This document shows, one piece after another, positions 437 to 37,836 of a stretch of DNA of 43,877 nucleotides. The notes under the pieces were generated by a model that was not told where the DNA came from, did not search any database, and worked only from the letters and a program-made list of their open reading frames with translations. The stretch is taken from the NCBI GenBank assembly GCA_018375675.1, contig JAHACW010000013.1:1-43877 (forward strand). The letters run 5' to 3'. The translations under genes were made by a program, and so were the position numbers. The first letter of the stretch is position 1; each line of letters starts with the position of its first letter. The DNA comes from Actinomyces sp. Lineage in GTDB: Bacteria; Actinomycetota; Actinomycetes; Actinomycetales; Actinomycetaceae.

Positions 437-578
437 GTGTGGGTGGTTGGGGTGTTAGTTGGGGGAATTTTGGCGCTCTCCGGCACCTTAATCAGGTCCC
501 GAAGCCCTCCATTGGCACTGAGGCCGGGCCGTTCCATGCGTGCATGCCCTCCAGACCGGCGAAACCTGCCGCGTACGC

Positions 579-675
579 GGATAGGTTATTGCGATCCGGA
601 TAGGTTATGAGGATGCGGATAGCTTATTAACCTATCCGCATGCCGATAACCTATCCGCATCCAGACAACCCATCC
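579..675. repeat. 97-bp periodic inverted array, copy 1 (3 + 3 heptamers)
   Basis: Forward sites GGATAGG start at 579, 598 and 617 (the third reads GGATAGC). Reverse sites CCTATCC start at 631, 650 and 669 (the last reads CCCATCC). Successive starts are exactly 19 nt apart within each arm, and 14 nt separate the starts of the two central sites. Forward sites are followed by TTAT; the first two reverse sites are preceded by TAA. The same geometry recurs at 37223-37319. The layout looks like an array of protein-binding sites around a dyad; the binder is unknown. Confidence 0.85.
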
Positions 676-836
676 GCATGGGCTCAGGTGTGGTCTTCGC
701 GTGCTCGCCGCGCCGTCGGTCGTGGGGGTTTTGCGGCATTAGAAGGCGGCTATCTGCGTGTCGCCGGCGTGTCGGATCTCTAATGATGCAATTCCCCCCG
801 ATCAACGGTGTACAAGCCATGACTCACGAGGGTTGG

Positions 837-1123: not shown

Positions 1124-1939
1124 ATGGACACCATCAGGAAAGCGGACAGCCGCCGCGGGCGGATCGCCTACGAGGTTGCGGGCCTCGCGTGGCTCGCCGA
1201 GGCCTCGGACCCCGGAGCAGCCGTCGTACCCGTGCTTGATCACGGCGCGACGTGGCTTGAGGAGCCCCGCCTGGTCTCTGTCGCGCCAACCCCGCGAGCC
1301 GCCGAAGACTTTGGCCGCGCCCTTGCCCATACGCACGCCGCCGGAGCCAGCCACCTGGGTGCGCCGCCGCCCGGCTTCGAGGGGGATGGCTGGATGGGGG
1401 AGGCCCACCTCTCGCTACCCGACCGCCCGAGCCCGGCCCCGGCCTCGTCGTCGGAAGGTGAATCCTGGGGTGCCTTCTACGCGCGCGAGCGCATCGCCCC
1501 CTACCTCGACGACCGCATCTTCACGGCCGCCGAACGAACGCTCATCGACAAGCTCTGCGAACGCCTCGAATCGGGCGCGCTCGACCACGGCCAACCGCGC
1601 CTCATAGAAGACGCGAAAAACCGCCACAACAGCATCGGTGCCGCCCGCACCCACGGCGACCTGTGGAGCGGCAATGTCATGTGGACCCCCGAGGGTGCCG
1701 TCCTCATCGACCCCGCTGCGCAGGGAGGCCACGCCGAGGAGGACCTCGCGGCCCTCGCGGTCTTCGGCTGCCCGCACTACGAGCGTATCCTTGCCGCCTA
1801 CAACGAGGCCTCGCCCCTGGAGGACGGCTGGCGCGAGCGCGTCGCCCTGCACCAGATGCACATCATCATGATCCACTGCGCCGTCTTCGGGCGCTCCTAC
1901 GTGCCCGAGGCCGTGGCAATCGCCCGCAGGTACGCATAG
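1124..1939 (+). CDS. Fructosamine kinase family protein
   Basis: This is a 271-residue cytosolic kinase-fold protein of the fructosamine/ketosamine-3-kinase family, which phosphorylates sugar adducts on protein amines so that they fall off. The catalytic-loop motif HGDLWSGN (H177, D179) and the metal-binding motif IDPAAQGGHAEEDL (D196) are both present and spaced as in the family. The frame is open back to 1025, but ATG 1124 is preceded by AGGAGG at 1109-1114 with 9 nt spacing, so the shorter start is chosen. The gene stands alone and converges on the next gene. The true substrate is not shown by the sequence. Confidence 0.85.
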   Translation: MDTIRKADSRRGRIAYEVAGLAWLAEASDPGAAVVPVLDHGATWLEEPRLVSVAPTPRAAEDFGRALAHTHAAGASHLGAPPPGFEGDGWMGEAHLSLPDRPSPAPASSSEGESWGAFYARERIAPYLDDRIFTAAERTLIDKLCERLESGALDHGQPRLIEDAKNRHNSIGAARTHGDLWSGNVMWTPEGAVLIDPAAQGGHAEEDLAALAVFGCPHYERILAAYNEASPLEDGWRERVALHQMHIIMIHCAVFGRSYVPEAVAIARRYA

Positions 1940-3846: not shown

Positions 3847-5589
3847 CTACAGGCGCGGGATGTTACGCATGTTGGAGGTGGCCATTGAGAAAGCCTCGGC
3901 GATGCCGCGGTTGAGAACGATCTTGCTCATCGCGGTCGCGAAGCCGACGACCTGGCCGCCCGTGATGGCCGGCGGGAGCGAGAGTGCGTTCGGATCCGTG
4001 ATGACCTCAACGAGGGCGGGGCCGGGCGCAGCGAACGCCTCGCGGTACGCGTCCTCCAGGCGAGAAGCATCCTCGACGCGCTCCGCGTGGAAACCAATTG
4101 CGCGGGCAATGTCCGCGTAATTCGTATCAGGGACATCTGTCTGGAAGTCAGGCAGGCCGTTGACCAGCATCTCCAGCTTCACCATGCCCAGCGTCGAATT
4201 GTTGAAGACGACCACCTTGATCGGTAGGTCGTACATCTTCGCGGTGATGAGTTCGCCGAGAAGCATCGAGAGCCCGCCGTCGCCCGACACTGACACGACC
4301 TGGCGATCCGGGTAGGCGACCTGAGCGCCCAGGGCCATCGGCAGGGCGTTTGCCATCGACCCGTGCAGCAGGGAGCCGATGAGGCGGCGGGTGCCGAGCG
4401 GATCAATGTAGCGGGCGGTCCACACGTTGCACATGCCCGTGTCCGCGGTGAAAATCGCGTCCTTCGCGGCCGTCTCATTGAGGAGGTGGGCGGCGTACTC
4501 GGGGTGGATCGGGCGCATCTTCTCCACGTTGCGCGTGTAAGCGCCCACGGGAGCGTGCATGATCTCCGAGTGCTTCTTGATCTTGGACTTCAGGAAGGAA
4601 TCGGAGCGGTTCGCGCGCAGGTGGGGGAGGAGTGCCTCGATGAAGGGCTTGACCTGCGCGTGGATTGCGAGGCCGACGTCCGTGCGGCGGCCCAGCTTCT
4701 CCGCGTGCGTGTCCACCTGGATGGTCGGGGTGGACGGCAGGAACTGGTCGTAGGGGAAGTCAGTGCCCAGCAGGATCAGTACGTCGGCGTCGTTCATGCC
4801 CTCGGCTGCCGCGCCGTAGCCCAGCAGGCCCGTCATGCCCACGTCGAAGGGGTTGTCATACTGGATGAAGTGCTTGCCGCGCAGCGAGTGACCGATCGGG
4901 GCCTTGAGGGCGTCCGCCAGGGCGATGACCTCGTCGTGGGCTCCCTCAACACCGGCGCCGGCGAAGATAGCGACCTTGTCGGCCTTGTTCAAGAGGGCTG
5001 CGGCCTCTTCAATATCGGTGGCGTTGGGAGCAAGCGTCGCGGGGCGCGCGGGCGCGTAGGTGGGAACGTGCTCAACGGCCTTGAGGTCAGAGACGTCGCC
5101 GGGCAATGTGATGACCGAGACGCCGCCCAAGCCGACCGCGTGGCGGATCGCCGAGTTCACCGTGCGCGGCGACTGCGCCGCGGAGGAAATGAGCTCGTTG
5201 TAGACCGAGCACTCTTCGAAAATGCGGTCCGGGTGAGTCTCCTGGAAGTACATCGTGCCGATCTGAACGCTCGGGATGTGCGAGGCGATGGCCAGGACAG
5301 GTGCGCCCGTGCGGTTCGCGTCATACAGGCCGTTGATGAGGTGCAGGTTGCCTGGGCCGCACGAGCCTGCGCACACGGCGAGCTTGCCTGTCAGCTGAGC
5401 TTCCGCCGACGCTGCGAACGCCGCCGCCTCCTCGTGGCGCACGTGGATCCAGTCGATGCCGCCCTTCTTCGAGCCGCCGGTTTTGCGCACGGCGTCGACG
5501 ATGGGGTTCAGTGAATCGCCGACAATGCCGTAGATCCGGTGTACCCCCGCATCAACAAGCTGGTTGACGATCTGTTCCGCTACGTTCAT
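3847..5589 (-). CDS. poxB: Pyruvate dehydrogenase (quinone), PoxB type
   Basis: This 580-residue thiamine-diphosphate enzyme decarboxylates pyruvate to acetate and CO2 and passes electrons through FAD to membrane quinone. It follows E. coli PoxB closely along its length: GDSLNP near residue 24, the catalytic-glutamate region RHEEAAAFAA (E53), AVCAGSCGPGNLHLINGLYD, LRGKHFIQYDNPFDVGMTGL, and the ThDP/Mg motif GDGGLSMLLGE followed by FNNSTLG. The C-terminal ~25 residues may be the lipid-binding tail of the family. ATG 5589 has AAGGAGA just upstream. An H2O2-forming pyruvate oxidase is the alternative, but the similarity is to the quinone-linked type. Confidence 0.88.
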   Translation of the reverse strand: MNVAEQIVNQLVDAGVHRIYGIVGDSLNPIVDAVRKTGGSKKGGIDWIHVRHEEAAAFAASAEAQLTGKLAVCAGSCGPGNLHLINGLYDANRTGAPVLAIASHIPSVQIGTMYFQETHPDRIFEECSVYNELISSAAQSPRTVNSAIRHAVGLGGVSVITLPGDVSDLKAVEHVPTYAPARPATLAPNATDIEEAAALLNKADKVAIFAGAGVEGAHDEVIALADALKAPIGHSLRGKHFIQYDNPFDVGMTGLLGYGAAAEGMNDADVLILLGTDFPYDQFLPSTPTIQVDTHAEKLGRRTDVGLAIHAQVKPFIEALLPHLRANRSDSFLKSKIKKHSEIMHAPVGAYTRNVEKMRPIHPEYAAHLLNETAAKDAIFTADTGMCNVWTARYIDPLGTRRLIGSLLHGSMANALPMALGAQVAYPDRQVVSVSGDGGLSMLLGELITAKMYDLPIKVVVFNNSTLGMVKLEMLVNGLPDFQTDVPDTNYADIARAIGFHAERVEDASRLEDAYREAFAAPGPALVEVITDPNALSLPPAITGGQVVGFATAMSKIVLNRGIAEAFSMATSNMRNIPRL

Positions 5590-6061: not shown

Positions 6062-9538
<3,477 letters not shown>

Positions 9539-9553
9539 TAGGGAGAGATAACT

Positions 9554-12500
9554 TTGCTGGACGCCAAAACGTTCGACAGCCTGAAGATCACCCTGGCCAC
9601 CGGCGATGACATCGCCGTCTGGAGCCACGGTGAGGTTAAGAAGCCGGAGACCATCAACTACCGTACGCTCAAGCCCGAGCGCGACGGCCTGTTCGGTGAG
9701 CAGATCTTCGGCCCCACCCGCGACTGGGAGTGCGCGTGTGGCAAGTACAAGCGCGTGCGCTACAAGGGCATCGTGTGCGAGAAGTGCGGTGTCGAGGTCA
9801 CTCGCTCGCGCGTTCGTCGTGAGCGCATGGGTCACATCGACCTGGCTGCCCCCGTCACGCACATCTGGTACTTCAAGGGTGTTCCCTCGCGCCTGGGCTA
9901 CGTGCTCAACCTCGCGCCCAAGGACCTCGAGAAGGTCATCTACTTCGCTGCCTACATGATCACCGAGGTCGACGAAAAGGGTCGCCACGAGGATCTGGCT
10001 GAACTGCGCGCCGAACTTGAGGTGCAGAAGAAGCAGATGGAGAACAACCGCGACGCGACGATCAACGACTTCGCGGAGCAGCTCGAGTCCGACATGGCCG
10101 CCCTGGAGAAGGACGGCGCCTCGCAGGCTGAGCGCGAGCGCGCTCGCAAGCAGGGCGAACGCGAGATGGCCAAGATCCGCCGCCGCTTCGACGGCGACAT
10201 CGAAGGCCTCGAGGCCGTGTGGGAGCGCTTCAAGGACCTCAAGGTCGGCGACCTTGAGGGCGACGAGCGCCTCTACCGTGCGATGGTGGCCCGCTACGGC
10301 ACCTACTTCAAGGGTGACATGGGCGCTGCCGCCATCCAGAAGCGCCTGGAGACCTTCGACCTGGAGGCCGAGGTCGCCGCGCTGCGTCAGACTATCGCCT
10401 CTGACTCCGGCCCGCGCAAGGCTCGCGCCATCAAGCGCCTGAAGGTCATCAACGCCTTCGTCGCGACCGGCAACTCGCCGGCCTCGATGGTCCTCACCAA
10501 GATCCCCGTGATCCCGCCGGACCTGCGCCCCATGGTTCAGCTGGACGGCGGCCGTTTCGCGACCTCCGACCTCAACGACCTGTACCGTCGCGTCATCAAC
10601 CGCAACACCCGACTCAAGCGTCTGCTCGAGCTGGGCGCCCCCGAGATCATCGTCAACAACGAGAAGCGCATGCTTCAGGAGTCCGTTGACGCCCTCTTCG
10701 ACAACGGCCGCCGTGGCCGCCCCGTCGCGGGCCCGGGCAACCGTCCGCTCAAGTCGATCTCGGACATGCTCAAGGGTAAGCAGGGTCGTTTCCGTCAGAA
10801 CCTGCTCGGTAAGCGCGTCGACTACTCGGGTCGTTCCGTTATCGTCGTCGGCCCGCAGCTGCAGCTGCACCAGTGTGGTCTGCCCAAGCAGATGGCCCTG
10901 GAGCTGTTCAAGCCCTTCGTCATGAAGCGCCTGGTTGAGAAGAACTACGCGCAGAACGTCAAGGCCGCCAAGCGCAAGGTTGAGCGTCAGCGCCCCGAGG
11001 TGTGGGACGTCCTCGACGACGTCATCCGCGAGCACCCCGTGCTGCTGAACCGTGCACCTACGCTGCACCGCCTCGGCATCCAGGCGTTCGAGCCCCAGCT
11101 GATCGAGGGTAAGGCTATCCAGCTGCACCCCCTCGCCTGTGGCGCGTTCAACGCCGACTTCGACGGTGACCAGATGGCAGTCCACCTGCCGCTGGGCGCT
11201 GAGGCGCAGGCCGAGGCCCGCATCCTCATGCTGTCGACGAACAACATCCTCAAGCCCTCCGACGGCCGCCCCGTGGCCATGCCGTCGCAGGACATGATCA
11301 TCGGTCTGTTCCACCTGACCTCGACGCCCGACCCGTCGGTGCCCGTCGAGAAGGACGAAGACGGAAACCCCGTGATTCCGTACTTCTCCAGCCAGGCAGA
11401 AGCCCAGATGGCGTACGACGCCGGCAACCTGCACCTGAACGCGACCGCGCGCATCCGCTTCGCCGACGGCACCGTGCCGCCCGAGGGCTGGGAAGCCCCC
11501 GAGGGCTGGGAGCCCGGCGACGAGCTGATCCTCGAGACCAGCCTCGGCCGCGCGATCTTCAACGAGCAGCTGCCCACCGACTACCCGTTCGTCAACGAGG
11601 TCGTCGGCAAGAAGCAGCTCGGTAACATCGTGAACACGCTGACCCAGCGTTACCCGAACGTGCTCGTGGCGGACTGCCTCGACGCGCTGAAGTCGGCCGG
11701 CTTCCACTGGTCGACCTGGTCGGGCATCACGATTGCGTTCTCCGACATTCAGGCCTCGCCGCGTAAGCGCGAGATCCTGGCCCGCTACGAGGCCAAGGCA
11801 GCCGAGATCGTCGAGCAGTTCGAGACGGGTATCATCCTCGAGGAGACCCGTTACGAGGAGCTCGTGAAGCTGTGGCTGCAGTGCACCGAAGAGGTCGCCG
11901 ACGACATGCGCGCGAACTTCGACGAGCGCAACACCGTGTACCGCATGGTGAACTCCGGCGCTCGTGGTAACTGGTCGCAGGTTCAGCAGATCGCCGGTAT
12001 GCGTGGCCTCGTGTCCGACCCGAAGCAGAAGCTGATCGAGCAGCCCATTAAGGCGAACTACCGCGAGGGCCTGACGGTTCTCGAGTACTTCATCGCCACG
12101 CACGGCGCCCGTAAGGGCCTGGTCGATACGGCTCTGCGTACCGCCGAGTCGGGCTACCTGACCCGTCGTCTGGTCGACGTCTCGCAGGACGTTATCGTCC
12201 GCGAGGCCGACTGTGGTACCCGCGCCGGCCTGAAGATCGACATCGCTCACAAGAACGAGTTCGGTGAGTGGGAGGCGTCCGAGACCATCGAGACGACCGC
12301 CTACGCCCGTAACCTCGCCCGTGACGCGGTGAACGAGGCCGGAGAGGTCGTCATGCCCGCGGGCACCGACCTGGGTGACGACCAGCTCGCCGAGCTCGTC
12401 GCAGCCGGCGTTGCGCAGATCGTCTGCCGTTCCGTCCTCACCTGTGAGTCGCAGGTTGGCACCTGTGCGGCCTGCTACGGCCGCTCGCTGGCCACCGGCA

Positions 12501-13456
12501 AGCAGGTCGACATCGGCGAGGCCGTCGGCATTATCGCCGCCCAGTCGATTGGTGAGCCCGGCACGCAGCTGACGATGCGTACGTTCCACACCGGTGGCGC
12601 CGCCTCCGCTGCGGATATTACGCAGGGTCTGCCCCGTGTCCAGGAACTCTTCGAGGCCCGCAGCCCGAAGGTCGAGGCGAAGATGAACGAGGCCGCCGGC
12701 CGCGTCCACATCGACGACGAAGACCCGAGCGCGCGTAAGGTCGTCATCACCCGTGACGACGGCAAGGAAGACCTGGTCATCGAGGTCTCGCGTCGCCAGA
12801 AGCTCCTCGTCTCCGAGGGCCAGCACATCGAGGCTGGCACCCCGCTGACCGAGGGCCAGCTGGATCCCAAGGAAATCCTGCGCATCATGGGCCGCAACGT
12901 GTCCCAGAAGATGCTCGTGGACGAGGTCCAGAAGGTGTACCGCGACCAGGGCGTGGGCATTCACGCCAAGCACATCGAGGTCATCGTCCGTCAGATGCTG
13001 CGCCGCGTCACCATCCTGGAGCCCGGCGACACGACGTTCATGCCCGGCGAGCTCGTCGACCGCATGGCGTACCTGACGCAGAACCGTCGCGTCGCAGCCG
13101 AGGGCGGCCAGCCCGCCTCCGGTCGCCAGATGCTGATGGGTATCACGAAGGCGTCGCTGGCCACGGATTCGTGGCTGTCGGCCGCGTCCTTCCAGGAGAC
13201 CACCAAGGTCCTGACCGAGGCCGCCATGAACGGCAAGTCGGACTCCCTGGTGGGCCTCAAGGAGAACGTCATCCTCGGTAAGCTCATCCCGGCTGGCACC
13301 GGCCTGTCGCGCTACAACGACGTCATCGTTGAGCCGACGGCTGAGGCCATGGCGAACTCGAACTACTCCGAGGCCGACTTCGGTGACGGCTCCGTGTCCG
13401 AGGACTTCCTCGACGCGCTGGGCGCCATCGACTTTGGCATGAACTTCCGCGAGTAA
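9554..13456 (+). CDS. rpoC: DNA-directed RNA polymerase subunit beta'
   Basis: This 1300-residue subunit carries the active-site magnesium triad NADFDGD (D535, D537, D539). The N-terminal zinc ribbon CACGKYKR...CEKCG lies near residues 58-80 and the second cysteine cluster [13 protein letters not shown] near 963. The bridge-helix/trigger-loop region [16 protein letters not shown] is present. It starts at TTG 9554, 15 nt after rpoB with GGGAGA ahead, so the pair is one operon. A strong hairpin 18 nt beyond the stop ends the unit. Confidence 0.98.
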
Positions 13457-36754: not shown

Positions 36755-36770
36755 GGGCGCCGTCGGGCCC

Positions 36771-36837
36771 GCCCGCCCGCTCGCCGGCCGCGCTGCGAGC
36801 TTCGCTCGGCGCGTCGCCTCGAAGCCCGGCCAGGCCC
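36771..36837. repeat. 67-nt dispersed GC-rich repeat, copy A
   Basis: This matches 43809-43875 at 63 of 67 positions, including 49 of 50 in the core that begins CCGCGCTGCGAGCTTCGCTC. The core can form CGAGC-TTC-GCTCG. It lies 131 nt beyond the map terminator, in the same orientation as copy B relative to its upstream operon. Confidence 0.85.
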
Positions 36838-36977
36838 TGCGGCCCCGCCGGCGCCCTCCACACTGGTGGTGCGCAGCACACTGCCACGGCCAAGGCGTGT
36901 AGAACGCGAATGGCCGTCGGCGATTCGATGCGCGGCCAGGCCGCGTCCCCGTGCCTTCTGAGTCTTCTTCGCCAATT

Positions 36978-37082
36978 TCGCATGCAATTCCCCTGCGACT
37001 ATTTCGAACCATGGTTTCGCAGCGTTGGAGTTACAACGTATTGAGGCTTCGTTGAATCTTCGTCCAATCGAATTGCATGCGA
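36978..37082. repeat. AT-richer segment bounded by a 13-bp inverted repeat
   Basis: TCGCATGCAATTC (36978-36990) and GAATTGCATGCGA (37070-37082) are perfect inverted repeats 79 bases apart. Inside lie CTGCGA/TCGCAG (36993-36998, 37017-37022) around the palindrome AACCATGGTT (37007-37016), and TTGGA/TCCAA (37025-37029, 37063-37067). The segment is less GC-rich than its surroundings. It could be a structured RNA or a small mobile-element remnant. Confidence 0.65.
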
Positions 37083-37222
37083 CATTTGTGTGGTCGGGCC
37101 CCGTGGTCTGCCGAAGGACAATAACCTGCGAGTGCCTGCACTCTGCTCAATCAGTCTGTACGGATGCGCCTTAGTGCTTGTGCGTCGTGAGGCCCGTGGT
37201 TCCCTCTGTTTGGGACTTATCC

Positions 37223-37319
37223 GGATAGGATGCGCGCATCCGGATAGGTTATGCGCAGCCGGATAGGTTAGTAAGCTATCCGGATGTTCGTTTCCTATCC
37301 GGATGTTGGTTACCTATCC
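37223..37319. repeat. 97-bp periodic inverted array, copy 2 (3 + 3 heptamers)
   Basis: GGATAGG starts at 37223, 37242 and 37261. CCTATCC starts at 37275 (reads GCTATCC), 37294 and 37313. Spacing is 19 nt within each arm and 14 nt across the centre, exactly as at 579-675. Most sites extend to CCGGATAGG or CCTATCCGG. The 12-nt spacers do not match those of copy 1. It lies 296 nt upstream of infA. Confidence 0.88.
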
Positions 37320-37392
37320 GGATGTGTGTTGGAGGCAGTGGCCGGTGCGCGCTCGGTTGGCACTCTGCGCTGAGGGGTGCAGTGAAGCGCGG

Positions 37393-37412: not shown

Positions 37413-37614
37413 ATAAGACAGACTGCGGCGGCGATTCGATGAAATGTGACGCATTAAACGTGAGCGAACCGACAGGGACCCCGACTACCGCCGATGGGCG
37501 TCAATGCCGTAGAGTAGTTCCTTGGGCGTATCTGCATCCGGCATTTGTTGGTGCACTATGCCTAGCGGCATCCGCCGCAACCTATCCGAGACATGTAGAG
37601 GATAAACGGAGGAT

Positions 37615-37836
37615 ATGGCGAAGAAAGACGGCGTCATTGAGATGGAAGGCACGGTCGTTGAGGCCCTGCCTAACGCGATGTTCCGTGTGGAACTGAAGAA
37701 TGGCCACGTGGTTCTCGGCCACATTGCGGGAAAGATGCGTCAGCACTACATCCGCATCCTGCCCGAGGATCGAGTTGTCGTCGAGCTGAGTCCCTACGAC
37801 CTCTCCCGAGGCCGTATCGTTTACCGCTACAAGTGA
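37615..37836 (+). CDS. infA: Translation initiation factor IF-1
   Basis: This 73-residue OB-fold protein blocks the A site during initiation. [40 protein letters not shown] (core [14 protein letters not shown]) and the end [12 protein letters not shown] are diagnostic. GGAGG (37608-37612) lies very close to the ATG; a second GAGG at 37598-37601 is more distant. It leads the alpha group infA-rpmJ-rpsM-rpsK-rpoA-rplQ. Confidence 0.98.

What the first reader, a model, noticed from the sequence alone, without database searches (positions are those of the whole stretch)
579..675. Six-site array with exact 19-nt spacing around a dyad
Three GGATAGG then three CCTATCC sites sit at starts 579, 598, 617, 631, 650 and 669. 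Ten-base flanks partly repeat (TTAT after, TAA before), but the 12-nt spacers vary. Fixed spacing with variable filler suggests selection on protein-binding geometry, for example by a cooperative regulator or a nucleoid or segregation protein, rather than recent copying. It is not a terminator, because no gene ends here. I know no described element with this layout.
Basis: partly seen in the sequence, partly recalled or inferred. Interest (0 to 1): 0.8.

Follow-up and report, generated by a model that had tools for sequence, protein, structure and literature searches.

The report
Dispersed six-site DNA arrays in Schaalia
An oral bacterium and its closest relatives carry dozens of copies of the same precisely spaced six-site DNA landmark, often where neighbouring genes run into each other, and its sites have stayed almost unchanged while the DNA between them drifted, which suggests that an unidentified protein docks there.

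Summary
The array is real: all six sites sit at the stated positions, four exact and two with one changed base. A second copy is at 37223-37319. It belongs to a large dispersed family of the Schaalia odontolytica group. Ten of 35 genus genomes give 14-49 matches, two give one, 23 none; the six multi-copy carriers placed on a tree form one clade. Of 172 distinct arrays, 90 are exactly 3+3, with 735 steps of 19 bp against three neighbours at 18, 20 or 22 bp. In nine checked orthologous pairs, outer-site GGATAG bases are 195/198 identical, linkers 94/132. Arrays favour convergent gene ends (26 of 50 regions, against 23 of 179 others) and often lie beyond another strong hairpin (41 of 69 stretches). 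RNA-partner covariation was not found; no RAYT transposase in 34 genus genomes. Best reading: a mostly inherited DNA docking array for an unidentified protein, between transcription units. Neither protein nor role is shown. Arrays are scarce near the replication terminus, but so are two other repeat families.

The parts
574..679 (.). Array 1, whole element (3+3 units; C at position 7 on the left half of the centre)
   Evidence: Family alignment: information concentrated from -43 to +62 around the third site; sites read
579..623 (+). Array 1, three direct sites GGATAGG, GGATAGG, GGATAGC at 579, 598, 617
617..637 (.). Array 1, central 21-bp dyad GGATAGCTTATTAACCTATCC, polar because only one half has C at position 7
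631..675 (-). Array 1, three inverted sites CCTATCC, CCTATCC, CCCATCC at 631, 650, 669
37219..37324 (.). Array 2, whole element between a map-like (M24 peptidase) gene and infA; sites at 37223, 37242, 37261, 37275, 37294, 37313
   Evidence: orthologous copies in G013 (3+2) and G012 (2+3), segment absent in G001 and G021
37261..37281 (.). Array 2, central dyad GGATAGGTTAGTAAGCTATCC (opposite polarity)
36766..36876 (.). Companion repeat family E2 (G+C-rich), often in the same intergenic island as an array
   Evidence: 15 of 19 copies in 47 loci within 1 kb of an array; whole-genome hits
36970..37090 (.). Companion repeat family C with terminal inverted repeat (GCATGCAATTC...GAATTGCATGC)
   Evidence: 13 of 16 copies in 47 loci within 1 kb of an array; whole-genome hits
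1124..1939 (+). Nearest called gene to array 1, fructosamine kinase family
   Evidence: Pfam PF03881; gene
37615..37836 (+). Nearest gene to array 2, infA (IF-1)
   Evidence: Pfam PF01176
35684..36592 (+). Gene upstream of array 2, map-like M24 metallopeptidase
   Evidence: Pfam PF00557

Best explanation
The array is a DNA-level, multi-site docking element. Each 19-bp unit is one asymmetric site of about 15 bp, roughly ATSYGGATAGGTTAT, plus a nearly free linker of about 4 bp. The two central units meet head to head in an AT-rich 21-bp dyad, and further units extend outwards in register, most often three per side. A sequence-specific protein, dedicated to these arrays and probably cooperative, most likely nucleates at the usually polar centre and spreads outwards. 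The arrays multiplied in the Schaalia odontolytica group to some 14-49 copies and are in large part inherited in place, with whole-unit and whole-array gains and losses. They sit between genes, especially between convergent ones. The most likely job is therefore architectural: a fixed nucleoprotein block that marks or insulates transcription-unit ends or organises the chromosome, rather than classical promoter regulation. Shown here: anatomy, spacing, constraint on the sites, distribution, near-restriction to one clade. Inferred: the existence of the protein, cooperativity, and the architectural role.
For: Family size and clade. Geometry: 19 of 19 G001 matches have a 19-bp step although 16-21 bp was allowed; 172 distinct arrays with 735 contiguous 19-bp steps, and three further sites at 18, 20 and 22 bp beyond array ends. 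Constraint: nine checked orthologous pairs, outer-site GGATAG bases 195/198 identical, against 233/297 at half-conserved positions and 94/132 in linkers; 35 automatically found pairs that share both neighbour genes, not independent of one another, give 759/768, 863/1152 and 365/512. Borders: information falls off at both ends of the array. Whole-unit changes at one orthologous place: 3+3 in the window, 3+2 in G013, 2+3 in G012. 11 of 18 G001 array loci have a G012 array next to the same neighbour gene on at least one side (my recount). In 800 kb of G001 GGATAGG is not enriched (50 seen, 43.1 expected, both strands), and the 5 matches to GGATAGGWWA are 4 in one array and 1 in a nearby remnant, so no single-site regulon is visible. 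Centre: C at position 7 on exactly one half in 117 of 172, on neither in 54, on both in 1. Position: 26 convergent, 22 tandem, 2 divergent of 50 regions, against 23, 108, 48 of 179 other intergenic regions of 100 bp or more in the same loci and 23, 152, 61 of 236 in forty 20-kb samples of G001. In 41 of 69 gene-end-to-array stretches a hairpin stronger than all 20 shuffles lies in between.
Against: No binding protein was found; carriers share no extra ParB-family protein, and neighbour clusters suggest no dedicated regulator. Seven of 18 G001 array loci have no array at the same place in G012, and the infA array is missing from G001 and G021, so no single copy is indispensable. Two other repeat families share the same islands and are equally scarce near the terminus, which could mean that these regions merely tolerate insertions. 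28 of 69 stretches have no hairpin beyond all shuffles, so some arrays may be transcribed. Arrays were collected by exact central hexamers and outer sites were counted only with at most one mismatch, which inflates apparent site conservation and hides lost units. The centre step is fixed by the search pattern in most calls. G018 and G028, outside the multi-copy group, have one match each.
Confidence: 0.55

Rival explanations
1. RNA-level element: the array is transcribed and folds into a long hairpin that ends transcription in both directions or protects mRNA 3' ends, as proposed for REP sequences.
For: Both window arrays fold strongly as RNA: -60.5 and -69.1 kcal/mol, z -7.8 and -9.3. Arrays favour convergent gene ends. 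Some arrays lie close to a gene with no hairpin beyond shuffles in between, e.g. stretches at L158, L170, L221. At positions -4 to -1 the central partners L1/R1 are the most alike of the cross-arm pairs, 0.78, and L3/R3 have the highest cross-arm association at positions 8-9 (z 8.1).
Against: Any inverted array folds this way. Linkers (-8 to -5) of pairing units are less alike (0.28-0.31) than linkers of different arrays (0.39), while units of one arm are 0.42-0.58 alike (135 arrays). At -4 to -1 the other partners score 0.63 and 0.67, below several non-partners, and same-arm association is stronger than partner association at positions 8-9 (134 arrays). In 117 of 172 arrays the two position-7 bases at the centre cannot pair. 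41 of 69 stretches hold another strong hairpin before the array. No Rfam match at the arrays. The unrelated Chloroflexi match L060 is by contrast a near-perfect hairpin with paired linkers.
Confidence: 0.2
2. Neutral or selfish miniature mobile element: copies spread by an unknown transposase and persist in promoter-poor intergenic islands because they do no harm there.
For: Dispersed copies with defined ends, clade-specific expansion, co-residence with two other repeat families, one array locus with 854-1559 bp between the genes in four carriers against 2-135 bp in nine array-free relatives, few divergent regions, seven of 18 G001 loci not shared with G012.
Against: Neutral copies should lose sites as fast as linkers; in the pairs compared they do not. 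Steps of 19 bp stay in register while flanks gain and lose bases. No Y1/RAYT transposase in 34 genus genomes. No match in viral contigs (exact four-site pattern) or in phage and plasmid records (one 181-bp query). Target duplications were not looked for beyond the infA locus.
Confidence: 0.18
3. Site-specific recombination site: the centre GGATAGS-TTAWTAA-SCTATCC is a core site for a tyrosine recombinase, with outer units as accessory sites.
For: Inverted arms around an AT-rich 7-bp middle, polarity in 117 of 172 arrays; cassette-like genes (mntA/hepT-like; an IS256-like transposase; both named from sequence recall) lie between neighbouring arrays in two loci.
Against: The middle 7 bp vary between copies. 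The mntA/hepT-like pair keeps its orientation relative to murB in G001 and G012. No linked recombinase or excision product was seen, but neither was searched for systematically.
Confidence: 0.07

Closest known systems
REP / BIME elements
   Same: Dispersed, extragenic, palindromic, mostly between convergent or unidirectional genes (passages of PMC3733652, and PMC1525189), reported to bind host proteins such as gyrase and IHF (passages of PMC1525189).
   Different: REPs are 20-40-bp palindromes tagged GTAG or CGTC, the GTAG type often with a RAYT transposase (abstract and passages of PMC3733652). Here the element is about 106 bp, three direct plus three inverted 19-bp units with fixed geometry and unpaired linkers, without RAYT in 34 genus genomes.
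Noc-binding and SlmA-binding sites (nucleoid occlusion)
   Same: About 70 and 24-52 dispersed sites per chromosome, under-represented in the terminus region (passages of PMC4726725); here 14-49 matches per genome and 6 of 89 loci in the terminus quarter.
   Different: Those are short single palindromes (passages of PMC4726725). Companion repeats here show the same terminus deficit, and carriers share no extra ParB-family protein; TetR/SlmA-type proteins were not tested.
Transposon-end arrays (Mu ends, Tn7 TnsB sites; recalled)
   Same: Several asymmetric sites of about 20 bp in direct orientation, inverted between the two ends.
   Different: Here the two ends are fused at a constant centre step with no cargo; among the 19 G001 matches no isolated half-array was seen (one pair of extra direct units lies 22 bp off its array).
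Start-associated sequence of cluster K mycobacteriophages (GGGATAGGAGCCC)
   Same: Shares the letters GGATAGG in a dispersed short motif (one passage of PMC4472889).
   Different: Single copies near start codons in phages, no array, no 19-bp geometry.

Membership tests
REP/BIME (with RAYT) | 20-40-bp palindrome ending in GTAG or CGTC | tested here: not met
   Consensus of 94 oriented arrays is an about 106-bp 3+3 array without such an end tag
REP/BIME (with RAYT) | Associated RAYT (Y1_Tnp) transposase for the GTAG type | tested here: not met
   0 of 34 genus genomes, 2 of 56 genomes in all
REP/BIME (with RAYT) | Extragenic, mostly between convergent/unidirectional genes | tested here: met
   26 convergent, 22 tandem, 2 divergent of 50
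Intrinsic terminator / structured RNA | Compensatory pairing between arms | tested here: not met
   Partner linkers less alike than linkers of different arrays; position-7 mismatch in 117 of 172
Intrinsic terminator / structured RNA | Located at transcript 3' ends without another terminator | tested here: inconclusive
   41 of 69 stretches hold another strong hairpin, 28 do not; no transcript data
Intrinsic terminator / structured RNA | Match to an Rfam family | tested here: not met
   At gathering thresholds only a tRNA in the window
Nucleoid-occlusion sites (Noc/SlmA type) | Tens of sites, scarce near terminus | tested here: inconclusive
   6 of 89 loci in the terminus quarter, but companion repeats 6 of 78 and 2 of 41
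Nucleoid-occlusion sites (Noc/SlmA type) | Noc-type ParB paralogue in carriers | tested here: not met
   7 of 9 carriers have one ParB_N hit; G027 has a second, G021 a second below cut-off
Nucleoid-occlusion sites (Noc/SlmA type) | Bound protein blocks FtsZ/division | not testable with these tools
   needs experiment
Tyrosine-recombinase core site | Recombination between sites observed | not tested
   Only single loci looked at
Operator array of a regulon | Sites upstream of a coherent set of genes | tested here: inconclusive
   26 of 50 regions have no gene start facing the array; neighbours fall into many clusters but were not annotated one by one; motif not enriched elsewhere

The most novel reading that the evidence does not exclude
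The arrays are the chromosomal binding sites of a previously unknown chromosome-organising or division-timing system of the S. odontolytica group: a protein polymerises outwards from each polar dyad on three or more 19-bp units per side, at 14-49 places between genes and scarce around the terminus, doing with multi-site arrays what Noc and SlmA do with single palindromes.
Probability: 0.15. Interest if true: 0.85.

Novelty: new variant of a known kind. Interest (0 to 1): 0.62.

Why it matters
Dispersed palindromes in bacteria are usually treated as hairpin RNAs or remnants of mobile DNA. This family is evidence for something else: a fixed multi-site geometry whose individual sites are held almost constant at inherited positions while the filler drifts. 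If a dedicated protein is found, the carriers, with a sister lineage (G007) in which no array was found, give a clean natural comparison for what a chromosome-wide docking system adds.

Tried and rejected
RAYT/REP origin: rejected, no Y1_Tnp in 34 genus genomes. Noc-type ParB paralogue: no shared extra copy in carriers. Phage, plasmid or viral source: no match. RNA covariation: not found. Autoregulated regulator next to the most widely shared arrays: those neighbours look like pabA-like, transaldolase-like, exonuclease-like, murB and similar genes (named from sequence recall); a MerR-like gene adjoins arrays at one locus shared by several genomes and was not pursued. Polarity of the centre against replication: G012 16 against 15, G001 10 against 3; against tandem genes 11 same, 5 opposite over both; small numbers, not pursued. 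Terminus scarcity as a specific sign of nucleoid occlusion: clear against uniform placement (6 of 89, p 8e-6) and against convergent-pair opportunity (p 3e-4), but shared with E2 and C repeats, so not specific. Arrays do differ from those repeats in the third quarter (28 of 89 against 13 of 119).

Limits and corrections: gene calls come from a home-made codon-usage caller. At the map-infA locus it called the wrong strand (map is on +), so at least one of the 6 'divergent' arrays (the window copy) and probably one of the 2 (the G012 copy L223) are artefacts. One search used 11 pairs (369/372, 273/360, 110/160); on rechecking two of them (L152:10715 with L227, L161 with L218) are not at the same place, so I dropped them and recounted nine pairs; likewise 13 of 18 shared loci became 11 of 18. 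Orientation of each pair was chosen for the better linker match, which favours the linkers. Dropped before counts: arrays with fewer than four contiguous units (most counts), arrays without both neighbours called (130 arrays, 102 counted), gene-end stretches under 40 bp, relatives G004, G011 and G018 from the intergenic-length comparison because their gene calls were not comparable, and L060 from the 172-array set (it is still among the 131). One search found 102 stretches and listed 80. G027 and G032 sizes are rounded. The tree holds six of the multi-copy carriers, window included; G024, G025, G027, G032 and G059 were not placed, and G018, with one match, lies outside the clade.

Full report
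What is there. The six sites at 579-675 are at the stated positions. Four are the exact heptamer; 617 reads GGATAGC and 669 reads CCCATCC. A second array stands at 37223-37319, between a map-like peptidase gene and infA. Chance is out of the question: the best of 200 Markov (dinucleotide) resamplings of the window had 2 of 6 exact hexamers in this geometry; array 1 has 5 and array 2 has 6.

Where it occurs. The window's own assembly is not held. The nearest genome, G001, has the same length as CP046315.1, Schaalia odontolytica FDAARGOS_732. A pattern of three inner sites is found in 9 of 58 relatives, all in the genus, at 13-46 matches per strand. With four inner sites and up to three mismatches, 12 of 35 genus genomes match: ten with 14-49 matches and two (G018, G028) with one each. 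Among the 80 listed of 102 stretches in named genomes, the carriers are S. odontolytica, Actinomyces sp. HPA0247, A. bouchesdurhonensis, Schaalia sp. ORNL0103 and two records labelled Sanguibacter keddieii 250_SKED and Xylanimonas cellulosilytica 352_XCEL. Four sampled loci of each of the last two are 91.5-96.2% identical to G001 over their longest alignments, so they are probably misnamed. One listed match is from a Chloroflexi genome (L060): a near-perfect hairpin, apparently unrelated. None was found in viral contigs (exact pattern), phages or plasmids. A tree of the infA region (25 rows) makes the six multi-copy carriers in it one clade (support 100/99) with array-free G007 as sister; G018 lies outside.

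Anatomy. In 172 distinct arrays (L060 excluded), 90 are exactly 3+3; others range from 1+3 and 2+2 to 4+8 and 3+9. Contiguous steps of 19 bp number 735; beyond array ends only three further sites lie at 18, 20 or 22 bp. Independently, a G001 search that allowed 16-21 bp returned 19 matches, all of 19 bp. The oriented consensus of 94 polar arrays with at least three units per side shows information concentrated from -43 to +62 around the third site; outside, values are mostly below 0.4 bits, 0.53 at -47, where some arrays have a fourth unit. The unit reads about ATSYGGATAGGTTAT followed by four nearly free bases. The centre is GGATAGS-TTAWTAA-SCTATCC. C stands at position 7 on exactly one half in 117 arrays, on neither in 54 and on both in one, so most arrays have a direction. 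In 800 kb of G001 GGATAGG is not enriched (50 seen, 43.1 expected); the five GGATAGGWWA matches there are four in one array and one in a nearby remnant.

Evolution. At the infA site the array is present in the window (3+3), G013 (3+2) and G012 (2+3); units differ by exactly 19 bp. A larger segment including the array is missing from G001 and G021. Of 18 G001 array loci, 11 have a G012 array next to the same neighbour gene on at least one side and 7 do not (my recount). In nine checked orthologous pairs, GGATAG bases of outer sites are 195 of 198 identical, against 233 of 297 at half-conserved positions and 94 of 132 in linkers; central hexamers (108 of 108) are identical by selection. In 35 automatically found pairs sharing both neighbour genes, which are not independent, the numbers are 759 of 768, 863 of 1152 and 365 of 512. 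Counting outer sites only when at most one base differs from the motif inflates the contrast, and lost units are not counted. The flanks drift with insertions and deletions. This is the strongest evidence that the sites themselves are constrained.

Position. No array lay inside a called gene; two overlap a gene end by 6 bp. For G001 and G012, 26 of 50 array-bearing regions are convergent, 22 tandem, 2 divergent, against 23, 108 and 48 of 179 other intergenic regions of at least 100 bp in the same loci. Forty 20-kb samples of G001 give 23, 152 and 61 of 236. Over all carriers examined the numbers are 52, 44 and 6 of 102 arrays. At one convergent array locus nine array-free relatives have 2-135 bp between the genes and four carriers 854-1559 bp. 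The extra DNA is a composite island in which two further repeat families, E2 and C, are often neighbours of arrays: 15 of 19 and 13 of 16 copies in 47 loci lie within 1 kb of an array, which is 18% of the bases.

RNA or DNA. Both window arrays fold strongly as RNA, as any inverted array must. But linkers of pairing units are less alike (0.28-0.31) than linkers of different arrays (0.39), while units of one arm are more alike (0.42-0.58). At positions -4 to -1 the central pair L1/R1 is the most alike of the cross-arm pairs (0.78), but the other two partners (0.63, 0.67) are below several non-partners. In mutual information the partners are not consistently privileged, although L3/R3 lead the cross-arm pairs at positions 8-9. 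In 41 of 69 gene-end-to-array stretches another hairpin stronger than all 20 shuffles precedes the array, so many arrays probably lie outside the mRNA. In the other 28 the array could still serve as a terminator.

Mechanism. The best reading is a DNA docking array for a dedicated, probably cooperative protein. The strict 19-bp step (about 1.8 turns) places neighbours on a slowly rotating face, and the head-to-head centre gives a natural nucleation point; both are inferences. The role is inferred from place: between genes, at convergent ends, rarely at divergent promoters. That suggests insulation of transcription-unit ends or chromosome organisation. Array loci are scarce in the quarter around the terminus (6 of 89 in four closed genomes), which recalls Noc and SlmA sites (passages of PMC4726725). 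But E2 (6 of 78) and C (2 of 41) show the same deficit, and carriers share no extra ParB protein, so this is only a lead.

Known kinds. REP/BIME elements share the extragenic, convergent-biased dispersal (passages of PMC1525189, and PMC3733652) but not the size, end tags, geometry or transposase. Literature searches for palindromic or dispersed repeats in Actinomyces/Schaalia, for REP-like elements in Actinobacteria and BIME-type repeats and for the heptamer (15 of 2,431 papers listed) showed, in their listings, no description of this array. The library holds open-licence papers only. I therefore file it as a new variant of the dispersed extragenic palindrome kind, with a layout I could not match to any described element.

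Noticed in passing
window 36970-37090 and 36766-36876: Two further dispersed intergenic repeat families (C with a terminal inverted repeat, 34 loci in G012 but 1-5 in three others; E2, 9-31 loci per genome) cluster with the arrays and are also scarce near the terminus.
   Followed up: partly
L209, L170 (G012, G001), between arrays near murB: A two-gene pair that looks like mntA/hepT (nucleotidyltransferase plus HEPN partner, named by recall) sits between arrays, with a partial murB copy beside it in G001.
   Followed up: no
L213:5653-7002 (G012): A gene that looks like an IS256-family transposase (by recall) lies within a cluster of five arrays.
   Followed up: no
Genome contigs records JVOJ01 and JVKM01: Records titled Sanguibacter keddieii 250_SKED and Xylanimonas cellulosilytica 352_XCEL are 91.5-96.2% identical to S. 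odontolytica G001 over the longest alignment at four sampled loci each and appear misnamed.
   Followed up: partly
window 37581-37587: A single AACCTATCC site lies in the infA leader and is kept in all five genomes aligned there, also where the array is missing.
   Followed up: no
L208 in G012, arrays at 4752, 4925, 5098: Three arrays at exact 173-bp intervals: local tandem duplication of array plus spacer.
   Followed up: no
window 6062-13456: Two long + strand ORFs (1158 and 1300 aa), likely rpoB and rpoC by size and place (recall, not searched), lie under a 2582-aa opposite-strand ORF without any Pfam match.
   Followed up: partly
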